Positions 1 through 54,360 of a stretch of DNA of 64,000 nt are shown here, piece after piece (position 1 is the first letter of the stretch; each line of letters opens with the position of its first letter). The translations under genes and the position numbers were made by a program. Source of the DNA: Sialis fuliginosa (Eukaryota; Arthropoda; Insecta; Megaloptera; Sialidae); assembly GCA_961205875.1 (NCBI GenBank), contig OY540813.1, positions 17,765,001 to 17,829,000 of the forward strand. The letters are read 5' to 3'. The notes below the pieces were generated by a model. It was given only the letters and a program-made list of their open reading frames with translations, did no database searches and was not told the DNA's origin.

Positions 1-3000
1 AATATCATTACACCAACTTGTGAGAGTCCATCTAAAGTTAAAGAAACAACTCCATATGATCCACTAATAACTCAATTAAGCGAAATGGGATTTACAAAGA
101 AAAGCGTAGAAATTGCAATAAAAGCTATTGGTAAATAAATCTTGTGATTTAAATTTATTATTATTATTTCAGTATTTCTTGAAATATAAAATGATTACTA
201 TGTTATAATATTTATAATGACTTTATTTTCAAGGATTGGTCTCAGATATTACTATAAATCCAGAAAGACTTGTTGCATGGCTTTTAGAGCATCCGGAACA
301 GCAAGTTCTTTCTGATTCGGAATCAAACAGCTCTTTTGATGCTGTATCAGATACAAATTCATTCTCTGATTCCGAGGAAATATCTGCTATTGATGGGGTT
401 TGTATATACTTATACAAGTAACATTTTTTATATTTTGACATATAATTAATTTTACAGACTGATGGAATAGGCAATACTTATCTACAACGATTTGATTTCT
501 TGACAAATGATGAATATGCTTTATATGTTAGAGACAATGTTGCTGTGGGAATGTTGGTCAGATGTTGTAGGGCACATGAAGGAGTAGCGCATGGAGATAT
601 TGGTCGCGTGGTTAAAATTGACCGAGAAGGTTTACATGATCTTAATTTACAAGTAAGATATAAAGATATTTTCTTATAAAATATTTTGATTACAGTTATT
701 AATTTAATTAAATTTTAGGTGGATTGGCAACATAAAGGATGTACTTATTGGGTAAGATTTATTCATGTAGAATTGCTCGGTTTTCCACCGTCATTACCGA
801 GTCCACCGACAATCAAACTTGGAGATAGAGTTAAAGTTAAAGCTGGTATCGCAGTTCCAAAATATAAGTGGGGTTATGTTACACATGAAAGCGTTGGTAT
901 TGTAACAGGTAATATTATAATATATCATGTTAATTATGAATATCATAATCAAATCGATGTTTTCTTTATAGGAATTTCAACAAACGAACGAGATGTTACT
1001 GTAGATTTTCCTAAACAATCTAATTGGACGGGATTGTTGAGTGAAATGGAACTTGTACCTGGAACTCATGATGGTATTCATTGTGCTGCGTGTAATGTTC
1101 TTCCTATAGTCGGCCCAAAGTTTGTTTGTAAGACATGTAAGAATTATAATCTGTGTGAAAATTGTTTCTATACAAAAAAATCTCACAAACATTCTTTCTA
1201 CCGAGTAGTAGAACCAGGTCAGTATTTCAATGAAATAAATTATATAAATATTTTCAAGTAAATGCAAAATTATTAAGAACAGCTTACATTTCTTTAGGTG
1301 CCCCGGCTGTGTTTGCTGGGAAACCTGGGCGTTATCACCGTCAAGATCCAGGTAATGCCGATGCGACATATTTGATAGAAGATTGGAACTCTTGTGTTAA
1401 ACGTTTAACTGCATCTTCACGAGAAAACTGGCTTCATTGCTTAACGGATGGATCTACAGGTTGTTGGCTCAGTTGTGGCACTCAAGGAAAACATTGGCTA
1501 CGTTTAGAAATGCAACCAAACATTCTTGTACATTCATTGTTTATGGCAATTGATCCAGCTGACAGTAGTTATATGCCATCATTGGTTGTTATTAGCGGAG
1601 GTGATTCGTTTAGTATTATGAATGAATTAAATGTTATTAATATCAGAAAGACAGATATGATTGTTACTTTGTTAAAAGATATTAAGGAGGTAATTTATAA
1701 AAAAATTATTTATTTATTTATAAAAATATTATGTTATCTTTATGACTTTTATTTTTTATTTCAGTATTATCCTTGCATTGAAATTTCAATAAAGCAATGC
1801 TGGAATGGAGGAATTGATTGCAAAATACATGGATTGACAATTGTGGGTAGACGTAATCAACCAACATATAATTTACATAGTTCAGCTGCTTTCTTGGCTT
1901 CAGATTGGGATCAATCTTACGAACAAATTTTACCATATACAGGTACAGTTGTTTTCTCATTGTCATTTTTTTTTATAACCTAATAAAAAATTTTTTTTTC
2001 TACGTTTAGTTCAAAATTCTGTGGATACAAGACAATCACCAGAACAAGTACATGGTTGTCAAGTTTATGTGTGGGGTTTAAATGATAAAGATCAACTTGG
2101 CGGAATGAAAGGATCTAAAGTGAAATTACCAGTTTTATCGGACGTTTTAAGTCAGTTACGGCCTATCCATATATCTGGAGGTTCTAAATCATTGTTTGTG
2201 GTTTCCCAAGAAGGAAAGGTAAAAAAAGTAATAAAAAATCATATAAAGAAATTGTTAACTGCAACTGTTTTACGAATTTAGATTTTAAATAAAAGATAAA
2301 TAATAAATGTTTTCTCTTGAATATAGTTGTACGCTTGCGGTGAAGGTACAAATGGAAGATTAGGCCTTGGTCATAATAACAATGTTTCTCTACCGAGACC
2401 AATTCCGTTTCTCAGTCAATATGTGATCAAGAAAGTCGCTGTACATTCTGGTGGGAAATATGCAATGGCATTAACAATGGACGGGAAGGTATTCTCATGG
2501 GGAGAAGGTGAAGATGGAAAGCTAGGACATGGAAACAGACTCAGTTTAGATAAACCGCGTTTAATTGAAGCACTGAGATCTAAACGTATACGAGATATAG
2601 CTTGTGGAAGTTCTCATTCCGCAGCAATTACAAGTGCTGGAGAACTGTACACGTGGGGACTCGGTGAATATGGTAGATTAGGTCACGGAGACAGTGTGAC
2701 ACAGTTAAAACCTAAATTGGTATTTAAATTAATATTTGTCGATTGTCTATAAACTAATTTGTATTTGCATTTATAGGTCAAATCTTTGTTAGGACACAGA
2801 ATAGTTCAAGTTGCGTGTGGTAGTCGTGATGCACAAACTCTAGCATTGTCAGATGAGGGTCTTGTATTTTCTTGGGGCGATGGTGATTTTGGTAAACTGG
2901 GTAGAGGTGGTTCGGAAGGATGCAATGTTCCTCATAACATTGAACGTTTAAATAACTTAGGTATTATATTGATAATATTGTATTTAAAACATGTTTAATA

Positions 3001-6000
3001 TTGGTATTGTTACAGAAGTTACACAAATTGAATGTGGAGCCCAGTTTTCATTAGCTCTTACTAAATCTGGTGAGATATGGACGTGGGGAAAAGGAGATTA
3101 TTTCAGACTGGGACATGGATCAGATCAACACATTCGAAAACCAACAGTTATAGAATCTTTAAAAGATAAAAAAATTGTTCACGTAGCTGTTGGAGCTTTA
3201 CATTGTTTAGCTGTTACGGATGTCGGTCAGGTAATAGATTCATGTAATTTTTAAATCACTATACTACCTGCATATCAGAAAACAAAATTATATAACATGT
3301 TTAAATGTTGTTCATATTGTTAAGCAAAGGAATTTAAAAGAATATTAAAAACTAAGGTGAAACATTATTTGTTAGGTGTTTGCGTGGGGAGATAATGATC
3401 ACGGACAACAAGGTAATGGTACTACGGTTGTAAATCGTACACCATCATTGGTCCATGGATTAGAAGATGTTAAAATAACTCGTGTCGCCTGTGGAAGTTC
3501 ACATTCTATAGCTTGGACGAATGGTGACAGTCAAGTAACATCAAAACATGAACCTGTTACCTTTGAAACAGCTAAAGATCCATTAGGAGCTCATTTACTA
3601 GGTATTTTTTATTATTTCAATACCATCATATAACTTTATCTAATGTATATTTTTTGATTTATATAGGATTATATAATTCTGAAAAAGATACAGAAGAAAC
3701 TACATCCAATAAATTTACACCACGTCAATCTTTAACCAGTTTGGTTATGTCTCTGGAATCTCTTGCAGCAAAACAACATGCTTTGACTCATTTATTGAAT
3801 GCAGCTCATATTCTGATACTGCGTTCTTGTATTGTCAGATCTTTATGTAGTCACATGGATACAGCTTCATTGATGGATGTGCCCCAACCCATTTCTTCAC
3901 CGACCATTGTGAACGAGACAACACCAGTGGTTAATAATACACCAGTTGTTGATAAATTACAACTAGATATTGCGCAAGGTGGTGGTGAAGCTCCTGTTTC
4001 TATTACTGAAGTCATAGGAATGAATGTAGGATTCATAAATATCTTGTATACATTTGTGCATGTGTTTTATATTGAATATTCTATTTGTAGAGCCCTCATT
4101 TGAGTCCAGATAATGACGAGTGTCCTTTAGCTATTTTGCAATCAATGACTGCTAGCAGTTGTTCAACTAGTTTTTCATCACGTCAGTCAAAAATGTCCAC
4201 TAGTGCCTTGTCAGTTATTGCTGCTACCCTCACATCTAATGCTGAAGTGAGTATATAAATTAATATTAATATTTTTATTTTACTAGCCAACATTATTGTA
4301 TAGGTTGTTGGTGAATCTACGCCCGCAGGCCTTGATGAATTCACATCACTGTTGACTGAAAACGATGCGAGGTTATTGGTTGATTTGTTAAAACTTGCTG
4401 TTGTTAATCGTATAGAATGTGATGTTGCAAAGAAGACTTTATCAACTATTCTAATTGGTGAGATATAATGAATAAAATAGAAAAAAATGTGTAATTCAAT
4501 ATTATTTTTATTTATAGCATTAGGAAGTTCTAATTCAGTTATTGGTAATATGTTATTGGAGTTATGTATAACTGAACTTGAAGATGCAGCTTCAAACTCT
4601 CAAGCTTTTGATACAAGTCCTCATCCTATTGTACAAGAAACTAGTCATCCATATATAGATGGTATTACATTAACAGGTATGTTTTAAAATAATATATTTA
4701 ACATATTTATAATGCAATTTATCACATTCATACAAATAGACAAAAATGAAAATTGGAGCTAAAAAATAAATAAAAGTTTATTGATATTTAGTATATTTTA
4801 TATTATTTTTAACAGAATTATGAGTACTCACTTATGTACCCAAAATACTCGAACCAGAGCAAAAAATAATTTATCCGCTTGATAAAAATATATATGTAAT
4901 GAATGCAATATTGTTAATTTTATTTATTTTTATCAGGTCATGTGAAAATACCAGGAGCTGATGCATTAAGGATTGAATTTGATATACATTGTTCAACAGA
5001 AAAAAGACATGATCCCCTAATTCTTATGGATGGATCAGGGAAAATTTTATTTAATAAGTCCGGGCGTGATTGGTCTGATTGGTCAGCTCTAGTGAGAATT
5101 CCAGGTAAATAATAATAATCTAGTAATGAGATGATATAATAAAAATAAAATGATATCTGTTTTTAGGAGATGAACTTCGATGGACTTTTACAAGTGACAG
5201 TTCAGTTAATGGTTGGGGTTGGAGGTTCACAGTTTATGGAGAGATGCCTTTGACAGATCCTTCTACACGCAGTTCTGATCGTGCAATGCTCAGCAAACCT
5301 AATGTAGAGCTTGTCGTCTGTCTTCTAGATCACAAACTATTACAGCTTCTTGATCAAAACCTTGTTGCTCGTTTAGCTGCTTCATTAGCAGCATGCTCAC
5401 AACTTAATGTTTTAAGTAAGTAGTTTTGAAAAATAATAATAGTAACTTGATTTTAAAATTCATTTTTACTATTTTTTTTCATTTTAAATTTTATTTTGCT
5501 AATATTTTTTTATTATATTTATTAATAAAATCGTTATTAAAAAAGATAATAATCAATATAACAAAGATAACTATGATATAGTGGAATATTCTTTGTACAT
5601 AAATGAAATAAAATGTTGATTTATATATTTTGTAATTAACGTTTATACTTATTTTTAAGCTCCGTCCCATAGAATGTGGTCATTACGTATGCTTCACAAA
5701 CTGTTAACACCTGATAAAGATGATAGGTGTATAGTTTCTGCAACTGATGGTATTTTGGCAGCTTTGTTGAATGAACTTCCGACTGCGTTGTTACGTCAGT
5801 ATGAATATGAAGATCCTTGTGTAAGATGCGGCATGTATTTGATGCATTCAGATTTCTTTAAGGTGATTGTATATATTATTAATAATTTATCAGTTTATCG
5901 TAAGATTATTTAGTGATGATTTATGGTAGTTAATTTATGTAAACGCATGTTATACTGTTAAAGTTTTAAGTGTGCTTTTATAATTCAAAGTAACTGACAC

Positions 6001-9000
6001 CATAATTTTTTATGCAAGCGTCTTTTTACACCAAAAGCTAATAATCATTCCACAAACTGTTGATTTTATAATTTTACTTTTCAAAATTCATCTATTGACT
6101 GATAAATAATACAACTTTCTCATATTTTTTCAACTATTTTGTGAAGTTAGTTATTGTAGCTTTTAAACAGCTGAAATGAGTATACTGTAGTTTTTTTTAA
6201 AAATAAGTTTAGTACTAGCTAATTTATTTAAAAATTAAAGAAAAAAGTTTAAATTTATTTATTTTTTAATTGATTATTTTTTAGGAACTTGTATCATTGG
6301 CATGTGATCTAGAAGTAAATAAGTTACCAGGAATAGCAGATAGTTTTAAATGGGCTTGGTTCAGACGTTATTGTTTAGCTTCTAAAGTAGCTGATTCATT
6401 GATAAAACGTACCACGTTACCTAAACAGTTCTGTGTAGATGTGCGTAAAAAGATCTCAGAAATATCTCCACGATCTGATAGCTCAGAAATGTGGCAACAC
6501 GAACGACATGATGTATTTAGAAAAGAACATGATGAACAATTACTCACTTGGTTAAATAGGTATGTTCAATAAATATTTATAGCAAAGTATTGCTTATAGA
6601 GGTAATGTAAGGTGAAATTTTTACTATTGTAATTGCATTTAAAAAATATTGTAGGCGTCCAGAAGATTGGAAATTATCATGGGGTGGTTCGGGCACTATA
6701 TATGTTTGGGGTCATAATCACCGCAATCAACTAGGTGGAGTTGAAGGAGCTAAAGTAAAATTACCTGTACCTTGTGAAGCTTTCACTAGTATTAGACCTG
6801 TTCAGTTGATTGGTGGTGAACAAACAATATTTGCTGTTACAGCAGATGGAAAAGTTTATGCTTCAGGTAAATTATTGCAAATTTAATTACCATGAACATA
6901 TTAATATTAATTATAAATTCTATGTAAAGGTCATGGAAATGGTGGAAGGTTGGGCGTTGGTAGTACAGATCAAGTGCCTGTTCCAACTTTATTAGAGTCA
7001 ATTGAACATCTTTTCATAAAGAAAGTTGCTGTAAATGCTGGTGGGAAACATGCTCTTGCTTTGACAGCTGATGGCGATGTGTATTCTTGGGGTGAAGGAG
7101 ACGATGGAAAATTAGGACATGGCAGCAAAAGGTATTTTAATTAATGATAATATAAATGCAATTGTTGATTATTGTAATTATTCAGTTGCTGCTTGAAACC
7201 AAAGCTGATAGAACGTTTACAAGGACAAGAAATTATAGACATTGCTTGTGGTGGAGCTCATTCTGCAGCAATAAACTCATCTGGACAATTGTTTACATGG
7301 GGTAAAGGACGTTATGGAAGGTTGGGACATGGTGATAGTGAAGATCAACTGGAACCTAAATTGGTAAATTTAAATAATTGTTGTCAAAAATGGTTCAATA
7401 ATAAAAAGTGTTTTAATATTAATTTCTTGTGTAGGTGGAGGCACTGTTGGGATTCCGTGTAATTGATGTAGCATGTGGGTCAGGCGATGCCCAAACATTG
7501 TGTATTACAGATGATGATAATGTTTGGTCATGGGGAGATGGAGACTACGGTAAACTTGGTCGTGGTGGATCCGAAGGATGTAAAATACCAATGAAAATTG
7601 AAAGCCTTGCAGGATTAGGTGTGATAAAAGTTGAGTGTGGATCGCAGTTTTCAGTTGCTCTTACAAGATCAGGAAGTGTTTATACATGGTATGTTAATTT
7701 ATTCTATGGAAACATTTTTTTATTTAATTTAAATTATTTTATTAAGGGGGAAAGGTGACTATCATCGACTCGGTCACGGTACTGATGATCATATGCGACG
7801 ACCACGTAAAGTAGCCGCTTTGCAAGGGCGTAGAATAATAATGATAGCTACGGGTTCGCTTCATTGTGTCGCATGCTGTGATCAAGGAGATGTATTTACA
7901 TGGGGTGACAATGATGAAGGGCAATTGGGAGATGGAACTACAAATGCTATACAGCAACCACGTCTAGTCATGGCATTGCAGGTATTATTTAAAAAAACAC
8001 ATATTAATACAAATGTAGACTTTAAATCTGTTGATCAAAATATTTTGTTTTGTTTGTTTTATGATGAATTTATAGATATTAATAGTTATGCATTTTTTAT
8101 TTATCAATTTTTTTAGGGTAAAGAAATAACAAGAGTTGCCTGTGGTTCAGCGCATACAATTGCCTGGTCAACATCTGAACGCTCGACTAATAGTTCAAAT
8201 GTTCGTTTACCAGTGGTCGCTCCTCTTGAGTATGATCTTTTACAAGATATCACTCCATCAGTGCTACACGACAGACTTGTTTTACTTCATCACTTCTCAG
8301 AATTGATCTGCCCGTGTATAGCAATGTTCCCAATAACTGGACAAGGTTCATTGAGTGAATTACGAAGTATCCTTGTATATTCTGTAAGTAAAATTATTAT
8401 TCAAATAAAAAAATAAATGTACAAATGAAGACTAAAGAAAGAGATTTTGAATTGTTTTTATTTCTTTTTAATAGGTAAAAGACAATACCTTTAGAAAAGT
8501 TATACAATCGACTATGGTTCGAGATAAACAACATGGACCTGTAATAGAACTGAACAGAATACAAGTTAAACGGTCAAGATCACGAGGAGGTCTTGCAGGA
8601 GTGGACGGGATGAAATCTGTGTTTGGTCAAATGGTCAGCAAACTTCCATTACTGACTCATGAAGCTTTGTCACTACCTCATAGAGTTTGGAAAGTGAAGT
8701 TTGTGGGAGAAAGTGTTGATGATTGTGGAGGGGGGTACAGCGAAAGTATTGCAGAAATGTGTGATGAATTACAGAATGGAAGCGTGCCTTTACTTGTTAC
8801 AACACCCAATGGAAGAGATGAGGCTGGAACTAATCGAGATTGTTTCTTATTGAATCCTAGAGCGAACTCTATACTGCATTTAAATATGTTTAGATTTCTG
8901 GGTGTTCTTATTGGTATTGCAATTAGAACAGGATCTCCCTTGAGTTTATCATTAGCCGAACCTGTTTGGAGACAGTTAGCAGGAATGCCTTTAAATCCGG

Positions 9001-9934
9001 CTGATTTAACTGAAGTCGATAGAGATTATGTTCCAGGATTATTATGTATTCGTGATATGGATGAAAAATTATTTACCAGTTTGGAAATGCCATTTAGCAC
9101 ACCATCTGCTTGTGGAAGAGATGTTCCTCTAAGTAGTAAATATAAGAAAATCTCTCCAGAAAACAGACACGAATATGTTCGTTTGGCATTGGACTTTAGA
9201 CTTCATGAGTTTGATGAACAAGTCAAAGCAGTAAGAGATGGAATGTCTAAAGTTATACCAGTTCCATTATTATCTTTATTCAGTGCTTACGAATTGGAAA
9301 CAATGGTTTGTGGATCACCAGATATTTCTTTAAATTTGTTGAAGTTAGTAGCTACATATAAAGGTATGTTTTAAATATTTTCTACTTTATTGTATTGAAG
9401 AAATTCATAAATGTATATTTTTTTTAGGTGTTGATGCTGGCGCTCCTTTAGTTCAATGGTTTTGGGATGTTATGGAAGAATTATCTCAGCAGGAACGTTC
9501 ATTATTCCTTAGATTTGTTTGGGGACGAACAAGATTACCTCGAACAATTGCTGATTTCCGTGGAAGAGATTTTGTGCTTCAAGTTTTAGATAAATATTCA
9601 CCACCAGATCATTTTCTTCCAGAAAGTTATACTTGTTTCTTTTTGTTAAAAATACCAAGATATTCTTGTAAGGTATGTAAAATAAAAAAAGTAAATTTGC
9701 AGTCTGCCAATATTATCAGAAATAATAATCGTACCATATTCTTTTTAGTTGGTACTGCGAGAAAAATTAAAATATGCAATACATTTTTGTAAGTCAATCG
9801 ATACAGATGAGTATGCAAGACTCCCGTTACAAAGTGATGCTACAGCTGGAGCGACATCAAGTATTTCGGACGTTGACAGTGATCGAGAAATGGATAGTAT
9901 TGCTAGTCATGACGCCAATTTCCCAATGGCTTAA
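1..9934 (+). CDS. HERC2: HERC2 E3 ubiquitin ligase, C-terminal half (5' truncated by window)
   Basis: HECT-type E3 ubiquitin ligase of the HERC2 family, known in nuclear DNA-damage signalling and protein quality control. I place 29 exons: 1-130, 234-397, 458-652, 719-908, 972-1217, 1298-1689, 1765-1942, 2010-2218, 2327-2719, 2777-2960, 3016-3230, 3376-3601, 3667-4025, 4091-4246, 4304-4457, 4518-4676, 4937-5104, 5167-5415, 5660-5862, 6285-6559, 6655-6866, 6930-7131, 7186-7363, 7435-7688, 7747-7981, 8117-8383, 8475-9363, 9428-9672, 9749-9934. They sum to 7113 bases, in frame from base 1 (2370 residues plus stop). Domain order: UBA-like (residues ~18-60), CPH/MIB-type (~115-190), ZZ zinc finger with paired Cys (~264-305), DOC/APC10 (~310-490), RCC1 propeller RLD2 (~505-890), a linker with a beta-sandwich-like part ending [10 protein letters not shown] (~1185-1270), RLD3 (~1485-1865), HECT (~1950-2320). 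The catalytic Cys is in SYTCFFLL (Cys2297, codon 9634-9636). Full-length family members are about 4800 residues, so roughly half is here. No frameshift or stop was seen. Identity is very secure; exon ends were read by eye. Confidence 0.97.
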
Positions 9935-15549: not shown

Positions 15550-18500
15550 TCAATCGACGACTTCTGCCCAAGGATGATCTATCTGGCCGTACTGAATGCC
15601 GCCAAGTGTTTCTAGGAATCTTTTGTATAATGGCTCTCTCTGTTCCAATGTTGGAATAAACAGAAGCTCGTTGAGGTATTCTATTGAGTCGATGGGACTC
15701 ACTATGCAGGCTGTACCAGCTCCGAATATTTCTAGTAACTAAAAAAAATACATATTACTTATATTAGTTGGGTATAGCGAACGAATTTAGTAAATAGCGG
15801 TTGTATGATATGTAAGGCCTTAGGCAAGTTAGAAAAGACTAGGCCCTCTACAAATTTGAACTCAGATTTTTCATTTGTGTAAAATAACATAAACGGAGAC
15901 ATTATTATCACCGTATCGCCCTTGAAAATCTGTTATATGATATGTGATTTAATACAAGTAGCATTTTAGCACTGTCGAAATGGCACGGCGGGCGTTTAAA
16001 AAACGCTTTGCTGGCATGTAAGATCTTTCTGTACTATTGAATTCAACCAGACTGGCATTTAAGAAAAAACGGTGTCCGTCGAGCGCTGGAAATCTGTTCA
16101 TTTGGATTTTATGCAAATGATACAGTAACGGTATCAGCTTTAAGCTGGCATTTAACAAAAACGGATTTCCAAATGAAAGAGATTTCCAGTGCTCGACGGA
16201 AAATAATTTTATTTTAAGGTGGGATTAATTTTATTACTATATTGTTATTACTATTAATAAAATGCAAAAAATAATTAGGGGTAAATATTCCCATTACCAC
16301 TCTGGATTTGCTCTTTTAACACATTGATTAAAATTTTTATAAATGAGTTTGATAAATAATCTGGAATTGATAATAGATAATGGAAAATTACGGTACAAAA
16401 TACATTGGAAAAATGTTCATCTGTTTATGTGTCTGGAATATACAAACTCATGTTGTGTTTATCTCATGTAGAAGTTCACGAAAACATTAAAAACAAATGT
16501 GATTATTATTATACAAATAACAGTACTTACTCTATTTTTATTAAGTAAATAAACGATATCCGCCATGTTTATTGCCCGTTCGGATACTTTGAATTCACCC
16601 CATTGTTTGGCTAGTTGTAAAATCGAGTGACGAGTGATTCCAGGTAATATAAGACCGTTCAAAGGAGGTGTAATTAATTCTTTTTCTGAAAATAAAAAAT
16701 GAATTGTATATCTTAAGATTCACGAAAAAAAAGTTATAGAGTGTAGACTGTAGAGTTTACAGCAAAATTATAAATTGCGTTTTTTTTGCTACGAGAGTAT
16801 ATGTAATTTTTCAAAGGCTCTTAGTCATTACTTATGCCGCTTCAAAATGTGTGGAATTTTATTCATAACTTCAGAGAAGGTCTATTAATTATGTAAGGTT
16901 TTGGAGGTGGGTGGGAGACAAGTACCGTAAAACTTTACGAATCTTAGATGTACAACATATTATTATAAGTAATACAAAAGTTGTGAGGAATTAAAAGTTA
17001 CATGCTTTAAGATACTAAAATATAAGGTGTTCTATTTAAAAAAGTTTAGTTTTTACTAAATTGACATTTGCAGTTTTTTAACGGTCTATCCAAAATTAAG
17101 TCCAAAATGAATTTTCAAAATCTGTAGTTAAATTTTCCAAAAAGATTATTTATCTTATTAATCCCTCAATGTTTTTCAAAAATATTGTACCACGTAGAAA
17201 TAAATGGGTCATTACATTCAAAAAATGTTATTTATCATTATCATACACCTTTTTGACTATATATATTTTTTTATAATTATAAAAGGAGGAAGTTTAAAGA
17301 GTATAAAGACGGAATGAGATAAATGTATTTTATTAAAAGCATTTCCATTCTTATAATTTAAGTCAGTGATGTTCAACATTTAACTTATCTTGAGCTACAT
17401 TTGAAAATAAAAAATATGAATACACACATAAGGTACTGGCACTAGTCTTATCCCCTTTAAGAGCAAGGTATACGGTTTTTTGGGATTGATAGACTTCTTT
17501 TTGTAATTCTCATCAATTCATGTTACTAATAAATAATAATAAAACTATAAAATAATAATAAATAAATCAAGTACCTCTTTATTAAATCAATTTAATTACC
17601 AAAATCCGCAAACATAGTTTTATTTTATTTTTTTATTTTACCCTTTTAGTTTGTTTATGTTTTTTTTTCTCCAATAATGGATTAAGTAAAACCAGTAATG
17701 GGCACTCAGTGATGGACACTTGCTAATGATTTCAAAATGATAAGTACAAAGACATAAATAGTTAAATTGTAAACAATGTAAAGCAGATTCTATGATAATA
17801 CATATAATATTTAATTAATACATATATTACACTATCACATACCTCCATTATCGTTGACGCAGAAAACAAATATATTCATCGTCCCGACTTCCGTAAGTTG
17901 GTGATCGTCTCCATACAACCAGACAGGCTGTTGTAAACCCCGGCGCGACGCTTCGCTTTGTACGCGAATTGTAGGCCCGTAGTTGGAACCCATCTTCCTG
18001 TCACCGCAACCGCCAGCCCACGCGCGTGTGTACCGTGGATCGGCGAGCAGAGACACCGCTTTCACACCCTTTGCGAAGTATGAGCCCACTGGACATACGA
18101 TCGTGTAGAGGAGAGCGGATTCTGATGACGCTACTCCTAGAGTTCCCTGAGGAGAAATATCAAATGTACTTATTCATTTTAAAATAACAAAATTGCTCGC
18201 TCTAAATTCTTTATGAAAACAAACCGTGGGTTCGACCCTTGAGGTCCACACAACCAACTTCCCAACATGAAATGACTATAAATACATGAATACTGATTAT
18301 TTATTGTTTCCATATAGTTTTATGTGAATATTAATGGAATTTGTCAGAAATAAAATTCACCTTTGTATTATGAATATTAGTTTTCTAATATTCTAATGTC
18401 AATAATATAATATACACATTTTTTGAATAATTAATCTGACAATTTAAATTTAATTGCATTTGTTTTAAAGGTAACATGAATTAGTAGACGTATTTATTAG

Positions 18501-48236: not shown

Positions 48237-48241
48237 TATAG
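48237..48241. repeat. Target site duplication (left), TATAG
   Basis: TATAG immediately outside the left LTR, identical to the five bases at 53699-53703. A 5-bp duplication fits BEL/Pao insertion. Confidence 0.95.
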
Positions 48242-48857
48242 TGTATTTTGTCGTCATAACTTATTTTAAAATATTCATAATATGGTGAGGTAGGTTTTTA
48301 AAATAAGATACGACTGATATTTCTAATTAAAGAATTATCACTAATTTATTAGGTATCGGTAAAGAAATACAATTTTTAAATATAATATAATATAAACGAA
48401 TATCTCGGCGAGATCTTTTCGAAGTATATGGTTTGAGTTTTGGTTTAATACTGGTAATTTTAAATAATTTTTGAAACATAGAAAATAGAGGAAAGGGTGG
48501 TAATATCAATTGGTTGGTACAAAAATAAAATAGGTGGTGACAACTAGTATCACTGATTGGTTTGAACTATAGATGGGGTGTGGTCTGGTGATTCCCAACT
48601 CAGGTCATCTTAAGACAAAATACGGTCATGAGAATGGGAAATTCCAAGAAAAAAGATTATCTGGGTTTTTACAAATTGTTACGGCCTGCACATGTGCAAG
48701 CCATAAAAGCGGTGAATTTGTCTTCTCAAAGCAAGATACATTTAACATTATATGGATTTTAAAAATATTTATGAAATTGTAAATTTATTTTGTATACTTT
48801 AAAATAAAATAATTTTAGAAGGATTGTAAAAATAAATGTATATCATACTTCGAAACA
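48242..48857 (-). repeat. Long terminal repeat, 3' LTR of the element (left)
   Basis: 616 bp, TGTATTTTGTCGTC to CTTCGAAACA in plus-strand reading, same sequence as 53083-53698 by eye. Two short reading frames inside (60 and 69 codons) recur in both LTRs and are not genes. Confidence 0.95.
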
Positions 48858-48867
48858 TCCTCCCCCC
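48858..48867 (-). other. Polypurine tract of the BEL/Pao element
   Basis: On the element's strand the ten bases next to the 3' LTR read GGGGGGAGGA, the purine run expected to prime plus-strand DNA synthesis. Confidence 0.85.
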
Positions 48868-48932
48868 GTTGAGCGAAAGTTTTCGATCAACAAATTCATA
48901 CAACTTATATTAAACTTATGATTATAGAGTTT

Positions 48933-51900
48933 TTACATTTTGTTATCATAAATTTGAACAGGTAAAATAGTTAATTTTTTAATGTTTCTTATAAATGTGG
49001 TAGTTGCAGTTTTAACAGATACAGTGCGTATTACACCGTCACTTCCTGGGAAACACTCAATGATACGTCCTAACGCACATTGAGTTGGTGGTGTGTTGTC
49101 ATCACGAAGTAATACGATGGCGCCCTCTTGTATGTTAGGATTGTCTGTTGTCCATTTGGTTCTGATCGTCAATTCATTGAGATATTCTCGACTCCAGCGT
49201 TTCCAAAAATGTTGTTTCACTTTCTGGATATGTTCCCAAGTTGAGAACAAATTGGTGGGTGTTGCGTTGTGATCTCGTCCATGTAGGTTGGTCAGAGAAT
49301 CACCAATTAAAAAATGGCCAGGGGTTAAGACTATGGGATCATTGGGGTCCGAGGATAGAGGTGTCAAGGGTCGGGAATTTAAGATGGATTCTATCTCAAC
49401 GATCAGTGCATTGAATTGTTCATAGGTGAAGGGTAAATAACGTCCGGCGACATATTTTAGGTGTTTTTTAAGAGACTTCATACAAACGAATACAGTTACA
49501 TAAGCCTTAATGCTTGATTTATTGCGTAATTTCTTCTCTTTTAATACGAAGGGACCACAATAGTCCACTCCAACGTGGTTGAAAGGTTGTGCTTGATTAA
49601 CACGCGCTTGAGGTAAATTTCCCATTAAATATTTGGTTGGTTGTGGTTTGATTTTATGACAAGTGACACAATTTTTTACGACTTTCCAAACTTGGCTCCT
49701 TCCATCAATTGTCCAAAATCTTCGTCGTAAACAATATAAGGTCTGTTGAACACCGGAATGTAAATGCATTTTATGTTCATTTCCGATTAACAGTTGAGTA
49801 ATGTGGTGATTTTTCGGTAAAATTACTGGATGTTTAGAATCATAAGGTAGATTAGATAATGATAATCTACCCCCTACTCTCAATAGTCCATAATTATCAA
49901 AAAAAGGGTGCAATTTTATCAATGGAGATGTTGACTTTAATGATGAATTTTGATTAATAGCCTTTATTTCAGCATTAGATATTTGAAATTGTACTAATTT
50001 TATCACACGGTTTAAGGTACTTTTTAATTCGTTTACAGTCAATGGCCCCTTTAATTTCCTTTGTGTGGTGAAACGATAGTAATAACTGAGTGTCCTTATT
50101 AACTTTCCTATTGAAGAAAATCTTTTAAGAATCATTTCGTTTTCTGTTGCAATTGATGTAAATGAACAGATAGCTGCTCGTTGTTCAGGTAAAATCTCTA
50201 TAGGTGACAATACAGTATGAGGCCACTGGTTTTTAGATTTCGTTAACCAACTAGGTCCTGATCTCCATAAATTTGACGAAATAGATTCTTCGGGTAATAC
50301 TCCTCTCGATACTAGATCTGCAGGATTGTCTCTTGTTCTCACGTGAAACCATTGGTGAATATCTGCTACTCGGTTGGAAACAAAGGTCTTTAATTGCTGA
50401 GGTGTTGATCTAAGCCAATGTAACACAATCATTGAACCAGACCAATAAAATGTTTGATTAATTTTTAATGGTATGGCCTTAATAACATAATCGGTTACCG
50501 ATGCTAAAAGTTGTGCACCGCATAATTCTAAACGAGGTATGGTTTGCGTTTTTAACGGTGCGACTCTGGATTTAGCGCATAACAATTGAATTTTAACATG
50601 GTTTTGTGCATCGGCGATTCTTAGGTATATACAGGCACCATACGCCTTTTCGCTGGCGTCAGAGAATCCGTGAATTTGAATATTTTTTACATTCTGTGTA
50701 ATAATTGTTCTTGGAAATGATAGATTGTTAAGAGTTTGTAGTTGATTGTAATAATTTTGCCATTTTGTGTGCATTTCAATTGGACGTGACTCGTCCCAAT
50801 GTAGTTTCAAGCTCCATAATTGTTGAATCATAATTTTCGCGACGATGATAACAGGTGCTAATAAACCTAATGGATCAAATATTTTTGTGGTTACGGAGAG
50901 TATATGTCGTTTTTGGTTTGTTGCTTCTGCTTGACTGGTTGCTCCGGTAAGAACATCATCAACATAGAAATCATTTTTTATAGCTTGTGCAGCCCTTGTA
51001 TATTCTTGGTCTTCATCATCGGCTAACTGGTGAAGACATCTAACAGCGAGGTAGGAGGCCGCTGCTAGATCGAAGGTAACGGTATTTAATTCATACTCTT
51101 GAAGTTTTTTATTCTCATCTCTCCATGATATTCTTTGAAATTTACGGTCTTCTTTACGCACTAAGAATTGTCGGTACATTTTCTCGATATCGCCTGTCAA
51201 GATGATGGGGTATTTTCTGAAACGTATTAATAACGAAAACAAATCTGTTTGAATCGTTGGGCCGGTAAATAAGGTATCATTAAGGGAAATGCCTGACGTG
51301 GTTTTTGTAGAGCCATCAAATACGACTCGTACCTTGGTGGTCATATTGGACTCCTTCATTACTGCGTGGTGAGGTAGATAATAGTTGGATGGATCAGCTG
51401 TTGCGTTGTTGACTGGAGACATATAGCCTAGATCTAGATATTCTTTTAATACATCACTATATTTTTTCTGAAGAATTGCATCGCGATCGAGTCGTCTTTC
51501 GGTGTTTTCAAGGCGTTTCAACGCTGAATGATATGATTCTCCTAGTTTTGTTTTATGACAGTTGAATGGTAGTGCTACTACATATCTTCCTTCTTGGTCT
51601 CTGGTAACATTTTTGCGAAAATGGTCTTCACATTGTTCTTTTTCGTTGGAATATTTCCTTTCTGATGGACATTCTTCTAATTCCCAAAACTTGCTTAGAT
51701 CAAATTCTAATGAGGTGGTAACATGACAGGTGCGTCGTTTATTCGTATGGTCGGTTAAGGGGGCGGCGCCACCTATAATCCATCCTAATAAGGTTTTTTG
51801 TAAAAACAACTCTTGGTGAAAGCTTGGGTCTGCCAATGTGATATTAGCGGGTATATTGGTGATACTGCGGTTTATCGGTTGGTTCGGTACTGCTGGTGAA

Positions 51901-52802
51901 ATAGTTTTTGAACTCTGGGATTCATATGATGTAATGTCGACACAATTAGCGCGTTTATCAAGAAATCTGAGTAAATCCTTGTAAGATGGTGATTCATCAT
52001 TTTTTAATGTTAATTCGCACTGCCAAATTGTATTTGAATTCACTTTTGATAATATTAAATCTATGAGGGGAATGTCCCAACTGGATACAGGAGCCTTTAA
52101 GTTTTCTAATGATCGAATATGTGGTTTAAAGGTTTCGACTAAATTATTTACCGCTGCTAGATTGTCCCTTTGTAATCGTGGGTATTCGCGCATTATTGCC
52201 CAGTGGCGTCGAGACATCTGACGAGTTGACTCGTATTTCTCCTTTAATAGGTCAATAGCTACTTCATAGTTTTCATTCGTTGTTTCTAGGGACTCAATGA
52301 CAGTTGCTGCTTTTCCTACAATTACTGACCGGAGATAATGGAGTTTCTTCACTGGTAGGAGATCCTCTTCATCCATTAATTTTGAAAAACGATTGTAAAA
52401 CGAGGTCCATTTTTCGGTAGTTCCATCAAAGATAGGTACTTGTATCGGTGGTAAAGTTATGGTAGTATTATTACGATGTATTCTTTCGGTGACTGGTCGT
52501 TCATCATTTTTATTTTTTAGTGTGTTTTTTGCGAGTAATTTTAAAACTCGACCCGTTTCGTGATTGTAAATTTCAAGATATTCTATTCGGCGTGCGCACT
52601 CTGAATCATCTAACTCTTCTAATTGATCTTGAATATCTTCAAATTTTTCAAAGGCTTTTAACATTGTGTTGTATGCTGATTTAACTTGATAGATGTCAAC
52701 ATTTTCAGGATTAGCTTCACATGTATTTAAAGTATTTCTGAGGATCGTGATGGTGCTCATTATATGACCGCGTTTCTTCATTAATTTGGGAAGAGTAGCC
52801 AT
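48933..52802 (-). CDS. BEL/Pao Gag-Pol polyprotein, single ORF with apparent internal losses
   Basis: 1289 codons, no stop or frameshift. Residues ~115-290 are a DUF1759 Gag region (PPIQVPIFDGTTEKWTSFYN). At ~310-345 the text jumps to LADPSFHQ and then LQKTLLGWIIGG; the CCHC knuckles and aspartic protease expected here are not seen. Reverse transcriptase spans ~430-630, with VRVVFDGS and YVDD (613-616, bases 50966-50955), then passes directly into KRHILS...IFDPLGLLAP, skipping a stretch usually about 80-100 residues long. RNase H spans ~710-830: Asp715 in GFSDAS is present, but WSGSMIVLHW has Gly789 where the family has a catalytic Asp. The integrase His/Cys region is present (~1010-1070), with GVDYCGPF as the first core Asp, but the frame then jumps near residue 1108 to a segment that normally follows the catalytic Glu. 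It ends with a typical C-terminal Pao region (LTPGHFLIGD). Family comparison is from memory; the frame itself is read directly. Confidence 0.9.
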   Translation of the reverse strand: MATLPKLMKKRGHIMSTITILRNTLNTCEANPENVDIYQVKSAYNTMLKAFEKFEDIQDQLEELDDSECARRIEYLEIYNHETGRVLKLLAKNTLKNKNDERPVTERIHRNNTTITLPPIQVPIFDGTTEKWTSFYNRFSKLMDEEDLLPVKKLHYLRSVIVGKAATVIESLETTNENYEVAIDLLKEKYESTRQMSRRHWAIMREYPRLQRDNLAAVNNLVETFKPHIRSLENLKAPVSSWDIPLIDLILSKVNSNTIWQCELTLKNDESPSYKDLLRFLDKRANCVDITSYESQSSKTISPAVPNQPINRSITNIPANITLADPSFHQELFLQKTLLGWIIGGAAPLTDHTNKRRTCHVTTSLEFDLSKFWELEECPSERKYSNEKEQCEDHFRKNVTRDQEGRYVVALPFNCHKTKLGESYHSALKRLENTERRLDRDAILQKKYSDVLKEYLDLGYMSPVNNATADPSNYYLPHHAVMKESNMTTKVRVVFDGSTKTTSGISLNDTLFTGPTIQTDLFSLLIRFRKYPIILTGDIEKMYRQFLVRKEDRKFQRISWRDENKKLQEYELNTVTFDLAAASYLAVRCLHQLADDEDQEYTRAAQAIKNDFYVDDVLTGATSQAEATNQKRHILSVTTKIFDPLGLLAPVIIVAKIMIQQLWSLKLHWDESRPIEMHTKWQNYYNQLQTLNNLSFPRTIITQNVKNIQIHGFSDASEKAYGACIYLRIADAQNHVKIQLLCAKSRVAPLKTQTIPRLELCGAQLLASVTDYVIKAIPLKINQTFYWSGSMIVLHWLRSTPQQLKTFVSNRVADIHQWFHVRTRDNPADLVSRGVLPEESISSNLWRSGPSWLTKSKNQWPHTVLSPIEILPEQRAAICSFTSIATENEMILKRFSSIGKLIRTLSYYYRFTTQRKLKGPLTVNELKSTLNRVIKLVQFQISNAEIKAINQNSSLKSTSPLIKLHPFFDNYGLLRVGGRLSLSNLPYDSKHPVILPKNHHITQLLIGNEHKMHLHSGVQQTLYCLRRRFWTIDGRSQVWKVVKNCVTCHKIKPQPTKYLMGNLPQARVNQAQPFNHVGVDYCGPFVLKEKKLRNKSSIKAYVTVFVCMKSLKKHLKYVAGRYLPFTYEQFNALIVEIESILNSRPLTPLSSDPNDPIVLTPGHFLIGDSLTNLHGRDHNATPTNLFSTWEHIQKVKQHFWKRWSREYLNELTIRTKWTTDNPNIQEGAIVLLRDDNTPPTQCALGRIIECFPGSDGVIRTVSVKTATTTFIRNIKKLTILPVQIYDNKM

Positions 52803-53063
52803 AATGATAAAGGTATAGGTATTGTATTTCGATTAAGGTGTGGGTAAATGGATTGTATAGATATATAAGGTACACTGGCCGAAATAATGGTGAATAATCT
52901 GAACCAACCTACCTTAATCAGCTTAGGTGAATTTCTCTGGGTGTTGATCGTGGAGACTTTGGGTGATGCGCCTTGGCCTGGTGAAAATTTCTGTTTCCTC
53001 GGTGTGGTAAATTTTCTTTGTTATTAGCACATCACTCACATAACACTCACGAACGTTAGCACA

Positions 53064-53081
53064 ATCCGGCTCGAAGGACCA
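53064..53081 (-). other. Primer binding site of the BEL/Pao element
   Basis: On the element's strand, one base inside the 5' LTR, the sequence reads TGGTCCTTCGAGCCGGAT. The TGG start matches the CCA end of a tRNA. I could not assign the tRNA species from sequence alone. Confidence 0.75.
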
Positions 53082-53082
53082 A

Positions 53083-53698
53083 TGTATTTTGTCGTCATAA
53101 CTTATTTTAAAATATTCATAATATGGTGAGGTAGGTTTTTAAAATAAGATACGACTGATATTTCTAATTAAAGAATTATCACTAATTTATTAGGTATCGG
53201 TAAAGAAATACAATTTTTAAATATAATATAATATAAACGAATATCTCGGCGAGATCTTTTCGAAGTATATGGTTTGAGTTTTGGTTTAATACTGGTAATT
53301 TTAAATAATTTTTGAAACATAGAAAATAGAGGAAAGGGTGGTAATATCAATTGGTTGGTACAAAAATAAAATAGGTGGTGACAACTAGTATCACTGATTG
53401 GTTTGAACTATAGATGGGGTGTGGTCTGGTGATTCCCAACTCAGGTCATCTTAAGACAAAATACGGTCATGAGAATGGGAAATTCCAAGAAAAAAGATTA
53501 TCTGGGTTTTTACAAATTGTTACGGCCTGCACATGTGCAAGCCATAAAAGCGGTGAATTTGTCTTCTCAAAGCAAGATACATTTAACATTATATGGATTT
53601 TAAAAATATTTATGAAATTGTAAATTTATTTTGTATACTTTAAAATAAAATAATTTTAGAAGGATTGTAAAAATAAATGTATATCATACTTCGAAACA
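53083..53698 (-). repeat. Long terminal repeat, 5' LTR of the element (right)
   Basis: 616 bp, same length and, by eye, same sequence as 48242-48857. It should contain the element's promoter, as the 5' LTR for minus-strand transcription. A 280-bp untranslated leader separates it from the polyprotein ATG at 52802. Confidence 0.95.
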
Positions 53699-53703
53699 TA
53701 TAG
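53699..53703. repeat. Target site duplication (right), TATAG
   Basis: Identical to 48237-48241. Confidence 0.95.
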
Positions 53704-53738: not shown

Positions 53739-54360
53739 TTAATCACCTTGAGTTGCATAAAGCAAAATTAATCACAATTCGTTAATCAGTTGTTTTAAAC
53801 CCATTAATATGTCAATTCTAACAAATAATCACGGTTATGATATATTTTATAAGGTAAACATTTTTTTTTGAATGCAGAAAATTCTACCAAGAATACATAC
53901 TAATGGCAAATGACATCTCTCAAGAAGGATACTGGCTCTCCTTTTGACCTTATCACATATCTATGATATATTAATGAACTATCTAGAATCCATAAAAGTA
54001 AATTTGTAAAAATTCCAATTGTGTGATTTCTTATTTTCTGTGTACCCACATCCAGACCAAACTGTTCGTCTTCAACCTCCCTATCCGTCGTTCCAAAAAT
54101 CCAATGTGATGTTTATAGAAACGGAAAAAAAGACGAAAAACAGAAATTGAAAGGACGAAAAGAAAACAGATAAAATCAAAATGTTCTGGCTGAGGGGCTA
54201 TGCCCGATGGCCAATTAAAAAAGGGTAAAAAATTATCATATTTAGTGAATTGTTCATTTTCAAATTGAGATTAAATTTAGAATTAACATTAATCATGGTT
54301 TGAAAACAACTGATTAACTAACTGTGGTTAATTTTGCTTTATGTAACCCGAGGTCAGCCA
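53739..54360. mobile_element. Non-autonomous TIR element, ~620 bp, next to the BEL/Pao copy
   Basis: The left arm, about 53739-53812, has GCATAAAGCAAAATTAATCA and GTTAATCAGTTGTTTT. The right arm, about 54285-54358, is its inverse, with AAAACAACTGATTAAC and TTAATTTTGCTTTATGTAA. Arms are about 70 bp with roughly fifteen differences. The 470-bp interior has no reading frame of note. It lies only 36 bp from the retrotransposon end. Confidence 0.75.

What the first reader, a model, noticed from the sequence alone, without database searches (positions are those of the whole stretch)
48242..53698. Very young BEL/Pao insertion with a gutted but uninterrupted polyprotein
Seen: two 616-bp LTRs that read as identical, a perfect TATAG duplication, PBS and polypurine tract in place, and a 1289-codon frame without stops. 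Family knowledge: BEL/Pao Pol has a CCHC/protease block, a full reverse transcriptase and an integrase D,D,E core. Here the protease block (~residue 310-345), a piece after YVDD (~627) and the stretch holding the last two integrase acids (~1108) appear absent, all without loss of frame. Inference: a non-autonomous, recently mobilised derivative that may still make a shortened Gag-containing protein and depend on a full-length relative.
Basis: partly seen in the sequence, partly recalled or inferred. Interest (0 to 1): 0.75.

Follow-up and report, generated by a model that had tools for sequence, protein, structure and literature searches.

The report
Gutted open-frame BEL/Pao retrotransposon family
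A jumping gene in this animal genome has lost essential parts of its own enzymes by clean in-frame deletions, yet it has recently copied itself and kept an open reading frame, and other families in the same genome look alike, which suggests elements that keep their own coat protein and borrow enzymes.

Summary
The element (48242-53698, minus strand) has two identical 616-bp LTRs, a TATAG duplication, PBS, PPT and one 1289-codon frame. Aligned with 11 full-length BEL/Pao frames of the same genome, it lacks the zinc knuckles and protease, the RT region after YVDD, six RNase H residues and the integrase block with the second D and the E. It is not an assembly accident: six copies with different flanks and target duplications share the PR, thumb and IN junctions, and five of six LTR pairs are identical. 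No full-length copy of this family was found; the other 133 of 140 Pol matches are at most 50% identical. At least three other families in this genome are gutted differently, lack an intact integrase core and keep one frame from Gag to the C-terminus. In one of them Gag is under purifying selection, the Pol remnant drifts near neutrality and no stop has arisen. In the window's family the Gag signal is not significant and Pol shows no purifying selection. Best reading: non-autonomous elements that keep Gag and borrow Pol.

The parts
53083..53698 (-). 5' LTR, 616 bp, TG...CA ends
   Evidence: identical to the 3' LTR
48242..48857 (-). 3' LTR, 616 bp
48237..48241 (.). target-site duplication TATAG, left copy
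53699..53703 (.). target-site duplication TATAG, right copy
53063..53081 (-). primer binding site TGGTCCTTCGAGCCGGATT, one spacer T after the LTR; tRNA-Tyr-like by recall, tRNA not confirmed
48858..48867 (-). polypurine tract GGGGGGAGGA
48933..52802 (-). single open frame, 1289 codons
52023..52430 (-). Gag region with DUF1759 (residues 125-260)
   Evidence: Pfam E 8.7e-30
51902..51903 (-). junction after residue 300: about 218 residues with zinc knuckles and protease active site absent
   Evidence: present in all six copies
51803..51816 (-). junctions after residues 329/333: 27 residues absent, including the second protease motif (LLGAD-like)
50955..50966 (-). RT YVDD motif, present (residues 613-616)
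   Evidence: RVT_1 weak match below the curated cut-off, profile 63-172 of 205
50915..50916 (-). junction after residue 629: about 74 residues (RT thumb region) absent
50433..50912 (-). Peptidase_A17 Pao domain (residues 631-790), complete
   Evidence: Pfam E 4.2e-57, profile 2-162 of 162
50436..50438 (-). RNase H carboxylate replaced: WSGS in W, C2, C4, C10; WSDS in C1, C12
50351..50352 (-). six residues absent after 817; C12 and C10 have the six, with 10-nt direct repeats CAGATATTCA bounding the 18 nt
49641..49802 (-). integrase zinc-binding domain H2C2, present
   Evidence: Pfam E 2e-08
49563..49565 (-). first integrase D (residue 1080), present
49478..49479 (-). junction after residue 1108: 95 residues with second D (DNG) and E (HFGGLWE) absent
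48963..49241 (-). C-terminal DUF5641
   Evidence: Pfam E 1.1e-35

Best explanation
This is one of six young copies of a non-autonomous BEL/Pao family that arose by serial in-frame internal deletions. Shown: intact LTRs, PBS and PPT; shared deletions; recent insertion of every copy; no full-length copy of the family found. Inferred: its RNA is packaged and copied by reverse transcriptase, and inserted by integrase, from other BEL/Pao families of this genome, some of which have the same PBS core. Inferred, mainly from the sister case L070: the element gains by making its own Gag, and elements whose deletions keep the frame open are the ones that amplify, either because Gag works on its own RNA or because an early stop would destabilise the RNA that is also the genome.
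For: Six copies with six different 5-bp duplications; LTR pairs differ at 1 of 3693 positions in all. PR, thumb and IN junctions shared by six of six. Copies differ from each other at 0.5-1.5% in the LTR (15 pairs), so several source lineages moved. Gag, Pol and C-terminal searches find no full-length copy of the family. Three more gutted families have one open frame from Gag to C-terminus, with frames over 1000 aa in 3 of 3, 5 of 5 and 7 of 9 Gag-matched copies (families grouped by eye). In the L070 family (4 of its 5 copies read): Gag 13 N/16 S against 20.1/7.4 expected under neutrality (P 0.001), NC+PR 32/24 against 39.2/14.3 (P 0.0015), Pol remnant 73/29 against 72.1/25.7 (P 0.25), with no stop against 6.3 expected (P 0.0012). 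W family plus L070 family, Gag against Pol remnant N/S: CMH odds ratio 0.31, P 0.0015. Full-length elements with the same PBS core exist, e.g. L060.
Against: In the window's own family the Pol remnant shows no purifying selection; amino-acid changes are even in excess (64 N, 10 S, 3 counted nonsense; expected 53.3, 18.1, 5.6; 99.8% of simulations had no more N than observed). Gag gives only a non-significant hint (12 N/6 S; Fisher P 0.073). One copy is frameshifted in Gag (C2, near codon 91) and one in Pol (C10, near codon 823), C12 has two stops (codons 1203 and 1242) and C1 a 1-nt insertion near codon 1274. Seven indels separate the copies within the frame, four of them in frame: not significant. 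This Gag lacks the zinc knuckles. Helpers would have to act across families at most 50% identical in Pol and 39% in Gag, and the full-length relatives were not tested for competence: simple motif scans miss YVDD or DSG-type motifs in several. No expression or mobilisation data.
Confidence: 0.62

Rival explanations
1. Passive passenger: all proteins, Gag included, come in trans; the frame is open only because the deletions are recent and happened to be in frame.
For: Pairwise dN/dS between copies near 1 (0.55-2.5 over 15 pairs); nonsense and frameshift changes already present.
Against: Five missing blocks all in frame (chance about 0.004 if independent, but this copy was picked because its frame is open). 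Repetition in three further families, with selection on Gag and no stops in one.
Confidence: 0.25
2. A full-length autonomous element of this same family exists but is absent from this assembly (lost, polymorphic, or in unassembled sequence) and drove the copies.
For: All six copies are young; older LTR relics at 85% and 78% show that these LTRs had a longer history.
Against: No such copy among the scored matches in 392 Mb. All six copies share the same large deletions, so the deleted form itself has been the source.
Confidence: 0.25
3. Assembly collapse or chimera.
For: Identical LTRs can be an assembly artefact in principle.
Against: Six loci on six contigs with different flanks and duplications share the junctions; five of them differ from the window copy at 3 to 48 of about 4220 internal positions.
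Confidence: 0.01
4. The gutted polyprotein acts as a poison or restriction factor on intact relatives, for element or host.
For: An enzyme-dead Gag-Pol fusion could co-assemble with intact particles (general knowledge).
Against: Pol remnant shows no purifying selection in the two families tested; the copies sit at unrelated sites.
Confidence: 0.03

Closest known systems
IAP I-delta-1 subtype of mouse (PMC6466679, passages read)
   Same: Internal deletion joins gag to pol in an open fusion frame; [quoted passage not shown]
   Different: A retrovirus-like element with one 1.9-kb deletion and full-length relatives of its own family; here five separate blocks are absent in a BEL/Pao element with no full-length family member found
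Pol-less Athila elements of Arabidopsis (PMC2410132, passages read)
   Same: Young non-autonomous families whose Gag (or Gag and Env) ORF is under purifying selection and which are thought to be moved by other families
   Different: Plant elements that lack pol sequences; here Pol is kept as an in-frame mosaic
TR-GAG elements of plants (PMC8704663, passages read)
   Same: Non-autonomous LTR elements with one Gag ORF; one was shown to transpose
   Different: Gag only; the example read has a similar potentially autonomous relative
Bovine ERVK[2-1-LTR] D-type elements (PMC10924933, passages read)
   Same: Shortened defective elements dominate new insertions, driven by competent ones
   Different: D-type elements have no intact ORFs
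Full-length BEL/Pao elements of the same genome, e.g. L053, L060, L066
   Same: Same domain order and LTR architecture, aligned through A17 and the C-terminus; L060 has the same PBS core
   Different: Carry the zinc-knuckle/protease block, the thumb block and the whole integrase core; the closest (L053) is 41% identical to the window's frame

Membership tests
BEL/Pao (Belpaoviridae) by descent | Pao-type Peptidase_A17 after RT | tested here: met
   Pfam E 4.2e-57
BEL/Pao (Belpaoviridae) by descent | Gag DUF1759 and C-terminal DUF5641, aligning with the full-length BEL/Pao relatives of this genome | tested here: met
   E 8.7e-30 and 1.1e-35; aligned to relatives
BEL/Pao (Belpaoviridae) by descent | LTRs, PBS, PPT, short target duplication | tested here: met
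BEL/Pao (Belpaoviridae) by descent | PBS matching tRNA-Arg or tRNA-Gly (PMC8742986, whole text read) | tested here: inconclusive
   PBS looks tRNA-Tyr-like by recall; one tRNA pattern gave no match, a looser one did not complete, and the two fetched stretches were PBS-like with no tRNA gene found; L060 and L063 here have the same or a similar PBS
Autonomous BEL/Pao element | zinc knuckles and D[S/T]G-type protease with its second motif | tested here: not met
Autonomous BEL/Pao element | complete RT including the region after YVDD | tested here: not met
   about 74 residues absent
Autonomous BEL/Pao element | integrase D,D,E | tested here: not met
   only the first D; four D-D-E spacings exist by chance but place the E inside DUF5641
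Non-autonomous LTR element with own Gag (works like) | Gag ORF kept | tested here: met
   frame runs through Gag in 5 of 6 copies; frames from the Gag start are 1289, 1278, 1239, 1320, 886 and, in C2, 94 codons
Non-autonomous LTR element with own Gag (works like) | Gag under purifying selection | tested here: inconclusive
   this family 12 N/6 S, Fisher P 0.073; met in the L070 family
Non-autonomous LTR element with own Gag (works like) | moved in trans by helper proteins | not testable with these tools
   needs experiment or population data

The most novel reading that the evidence does not exclude
In one animal genome several BEL/Pao families have converged on the same state: integrase core broken, other enzymes cut to different degrees, Gag kept, and one frame held open across a Pol remnant whose amino acids drift freely. 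What is selected after Gag is then not a protein but translation to the end, for example so that the RNA, which is also the genome, escapes decay of transcripts with early stops.
Probability: 0.25. Interest if true: 0.72.

Novelty: new variant of a known kind. Interest (0 to 1): 0.52.

Why it matters
Non-autonomous LTR elements with their own Gag are described in plants and, as a gag-pol fusion, in mouse. Here the pattern appears in BEL/Pao and recurs in several families of one genome, so it can be tested statistically rather than told as an anecdote. It makes an open question testable: why defective retroelements that spread so often keep a reading frame. The families differ in what they lost, which offers an order of dispensability: in the four open-frame gutted families seen the integrase core is broken and Gag is kept (Gag was one of the search queries, so its retention is not an independent count).

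Tried and rejected
BEL/Pao relatives in public viral contigs: three scans found none. In bacterial/archaeal genomes 24 stretches matched a C-terminal motif pattern (I estimated about 22 by chance in reasoning, not in a call) and none of the 24 encodes a relative by tblastn. Solved structures: nothing relevant. Alternative positions for D,D,E: spacing matches exist but fall in DUF5641. Spliced-RNA origin of the deletions: no obvious splice signature at the shared junctions, judged by eye in reasoning only; one segregating deletion lies between 10-nt direct repeats, which fits template slippage. Old LTR relics as full-length partner: no internal sequence in the 9.9 kb fetched around each of two. 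Selection in the 1095/1464 family (L069, L075, L052): too few changes, 20 N/3 S. Full-length control pair L053/L054: 9 N/5 S, too few, so there is no full-length yardstick for the N/S tests. tRNA identity: not settled.

Counting notes. One search counts three nonsense events in C12; one search shows two real stops, the third being a composite of two changes in one codon. Likewise the count of 2 nonsense for the L070 family comes from composite codons: the frames taken have no internal stop. L054 and L055 (alike to L053; L055's longest frame is 1130 aa, without Gag) were fetched but left out of the multiple alignments: 13 of 15 regions were used, 11 of them as full-length. In one search six gutted frames (W, L052, L061, L069, L070, L071) were compared with those 11. 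The 15 regions were picked by hand from the matches.

Papers: searches. I saw no description of in-frame gutted BEL/Pao families in these listings or in the passages read; that covers only this library and these words. Also read: PMC554778 and PMC3087523 (passages), PMC3118150 (outline with abstract, and a term search that found nothing), PMC3286476 (passages).
Full report
The element. Between 48242 and 53698 the window holds a complete LTR retrotransposon on the minus strand. The two LTRs are 616 bp and identical; the flanks carry the duplication TATAG. The PBS (TGGTCCTTCGAGCCGGATT) follows the 5' LTR after one base, and the polypurine tract GGGGGGAGGA abuts the 3' LTR. One frame of 1289 codons (52802 to 48933) is open where about 87 stops would be expected from base composition; the other two frames of that strand hold 113 and 95. 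Pfam, given pieces, finds Gag DUF1759, a weak RVT_1 match that stops at profile position 172 of 205, a complete Peptidase_A17 domain beginning where RVT_1 ends, the integrase zinc domain and DUF5641, and no protease or integrase-core family.

What is missing. The source genome is held (392 Mb in 20 contigs) and is rich in BEL/Pao elements. I fetched 15 regions with relatives and aligned 13 of their frames with the window's frame. Against all 11 full-length ones the window's element lacks a median of 218 residues after residue 300 (zinc knuckles and protease active site), 27 residues after 329/333 (second protease motif), 74 after 629 (the RT region after YVDD), six after 817 (RNase H) and 95 after 1108 (integrase, with the second D and the E). 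Pfam recognises DUF1758 and rve in L053 and rve in L060 and L066, all below its curated cut-offs; it missed the protease in L066. Its silence on the window's frame is therefore supporting evidence, and the alignment is what counts. Full-length here means that all blocks are present; competence of the relatives was not tested, and simple motif scans vary among them.

Copies. An LTR search gave 18 matches, 12 of them in six pairs spaced 4822-4953 bp apart. All six elements have different 5-bp duplications; their LTR pairs differ at 1 of 3693 positions in total. The residues at the PR, thumb and IN junctions are the same in six of six apart from single substitutions nearby. Internally the other five differ from the window copy at 3, 24, 46, 46 and 48 of 4204-4225 positions; the LTRs of different copies differ by 0.5-1.5%. 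Each insertion is thus young, but the copies come from several source lineages. For this insertion alone zero differences in 616 bp bounds LTR divergence at 0.49% (95%); with a recalled insect rate near 3e-9 per site and generation that is under about 0.8 million generations. The characters are reticulate: C4 is closer to W than C1 is, yet has the 93-nt duplication of C12 and C10 (86 of 93 positions match the neighbouring unit, tested in C4); the RNase H D survives in C1 and C12 only, the 18 nt in C12 and C10 only, and an AA insertion in the PBS occurs in C2 and C10 only. Recombination between co-packaged RNAs would explain this (inference). The 18-nt block is bounded by 10-nt direct repeats, as expected for template slippage.

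No full-length partner found. With the A17 piece, 140 places match; seven rows belong to the six copies and none of the other 133 exceeds 50% identity. With the Gag piece, nine of 143 rows belong to the six copies and none of the other 134 exceeds 39%. Older LTR relics (85% and 78%) have no internal sequence within the 9.9 kb fetched around each. The tool scores only its best candidates, so these counts are lower bounds.

Is the frame under selection? In the window's family 95 distinct changes fall in the frame: 76 amino-acid changes, 16 silent, 3 counted as nonsense. With the same base spectrum placed at random one expects 66.1, 21.8 and 7.1. A check shows two real stops, both in C12 at codons 1203 and 1242; the third counted event is a composite of two changes in one codon. 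The Pol part (64/10/3 against 53.3/18.1/5.6) shows no purifying selection; amino-acid changes are if anything in excess (99.8% of simulations had no more), and codons 901-1289 hold no silent change at all (27 amino-acid and 3 counted nonsense changes). I cannot explain that excess. Gag (12/6/0 against 12.9/3.6/1.5) gives a hint at most (Gag against Pol, Fisher P 0.073). From the Gag start the frames are 1289 (W), 1278 (C1), 1239 (C12), 1320 (C4), 886 (C10) and 94 (C2) codons. C2 is frameshifted in a run of A and C10 in an AG repeat, so sequencing slips are possible; C1 has a 1-nt insertion near codon 1274. Of seven indels separating the copies within the frame, four are in frame, which is not significant (my arithmetic). 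So this family alone does not prove that the shortened protein matters.

The pattern recurs. The Gag, A17, integrase-core and C-terminal searches show further families with short but open frames. Grouped by eye: (a) 1464/1095 aa, three copies; (b) 1118-1133 aa, five copies; (c) 1511 aa, nine Gag-matched copies of which seven have frames over 1000 aa. In all three one frame runs from Gag into the C-terminal domain and the integrase core is broken: (a) matches only core positions 95-137 of 138, (b) about 20-77, (c) none. Alignment of representatives shows different deletions: L052 and L069 lack the zinc domain and most of the core, L069 also 367 conserved columns, mostly RT; L070 lacks several blocks of RT, RNase H and integrase; L061 lacks only the core and part of the C-terminus. 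Two more multi-copy families (1094 and 1197 aa) also have a missing or cut integrase core, but their frames were not seen to reach the C-terminal domain (of the 1197 family no copy was read). Families were noticed partly because their frames are open and with Gag as a query, so the share of open ones and the retention of Gag are not unbiased estimates.

A stronger test. Family (b) is divergent enough. Four of its five copies were read (L070, L072, L073, L074); all five have open frames. Pairwise dN/dS is 0.08-0.30 in Gag, 0.23-0.73 in NC plus protease, and 0.58-0.68 in the Pol remnant. By distinct changes against neutral placement: Gag 13 N/16 S (expected 20.1/7.4, P 0.001), NC+PR 32/24 (39.2/14.3, P 0.0015), Pol remnant 73/29 (72.1/25.7, P 0.25). 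The remnant has taken 104 changes without a stop where 6.3 would be expected (P 0.0012). Gag is selected, the Pol remnant's residues nearly not, but its frame is. Pooling both families, Gag is more constrained than the Pol remnant (CMH P 0.0015). A full-length yardstick is missing: the only pair at hand, L053/L054, has 14 changes.

Mechanism. Steps shown: complete cis-acting ends, loss of essential enzyme parts, repeated recent insertion of the deleted form. Steps inferred: RT and integrase come from other BEL/Pao families, some of which have the same PBS core (66 sites in the genome, none for the pattern read backwards; L060); Gag made from the element's own RNA helps that RNA, as the gag-pol fusion of IAP I-delta-1 is reported to do in cis (PMC6466679); and an open frame protects the RNA or lets Gag translation finish normally. 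The window's family has also lost zinc knuckles and protease, so its Gag would need co-assembly with a helper Gag. The plain rival, a passenger carried wholly in trans, remains possible for this family.

Verdict. The finding is real and its interpretation holds, with the correction that no same-family partner was found. Against known Gag-bearing non-autonomous elements (Athila, TR-GAG, IAP I-delta-1) it is a new variant: BEL/Pao, in-frame mosaic Pol, several families in one genome. The organism was not identified by name; 'animal' rests on the BEL/Pao element and a HERC2-like gene.

Noticed in passing
window 719-9792, + strand: HERC2-like gene fragments: ZZ, Cul7/CPH, RCC1 and HECT matches; the gene name is my reading.
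   Followed up: partly
window 17838-18173, - strand: Exon-like open stretch with a class IV aminotransferase match below the curated cut-off.
   Followed up: no
window 53745-53809 and 54290-54354: 65-nt inverted repeat arms, 85% complementary, 480 nt apart, just right of the element; MITE-like, not examined.
   Followed up: no
L061; G000 C8, C12, C4, C9, C11, C6: A multi-copy BEL/Pao family with frames near 1511 aa that lacks the integrase core in frame while CCHC motifs and the upstream Pol blocks remain.
   Followed up: partly
window family, codons 901-1289: No silent change in this stretch against 27 amino-acid changes; unexplained excess.
   Followed up: partly
L035 and L039, PBS: An AA insertion inside the PBS in copies C2 and C10, which are not each other's closest relatives.
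   Followed up: no
W versus C2: LTRs differ at 3 of 616 positions, but the internal part at only 3 of 4224.
   Followed up: no
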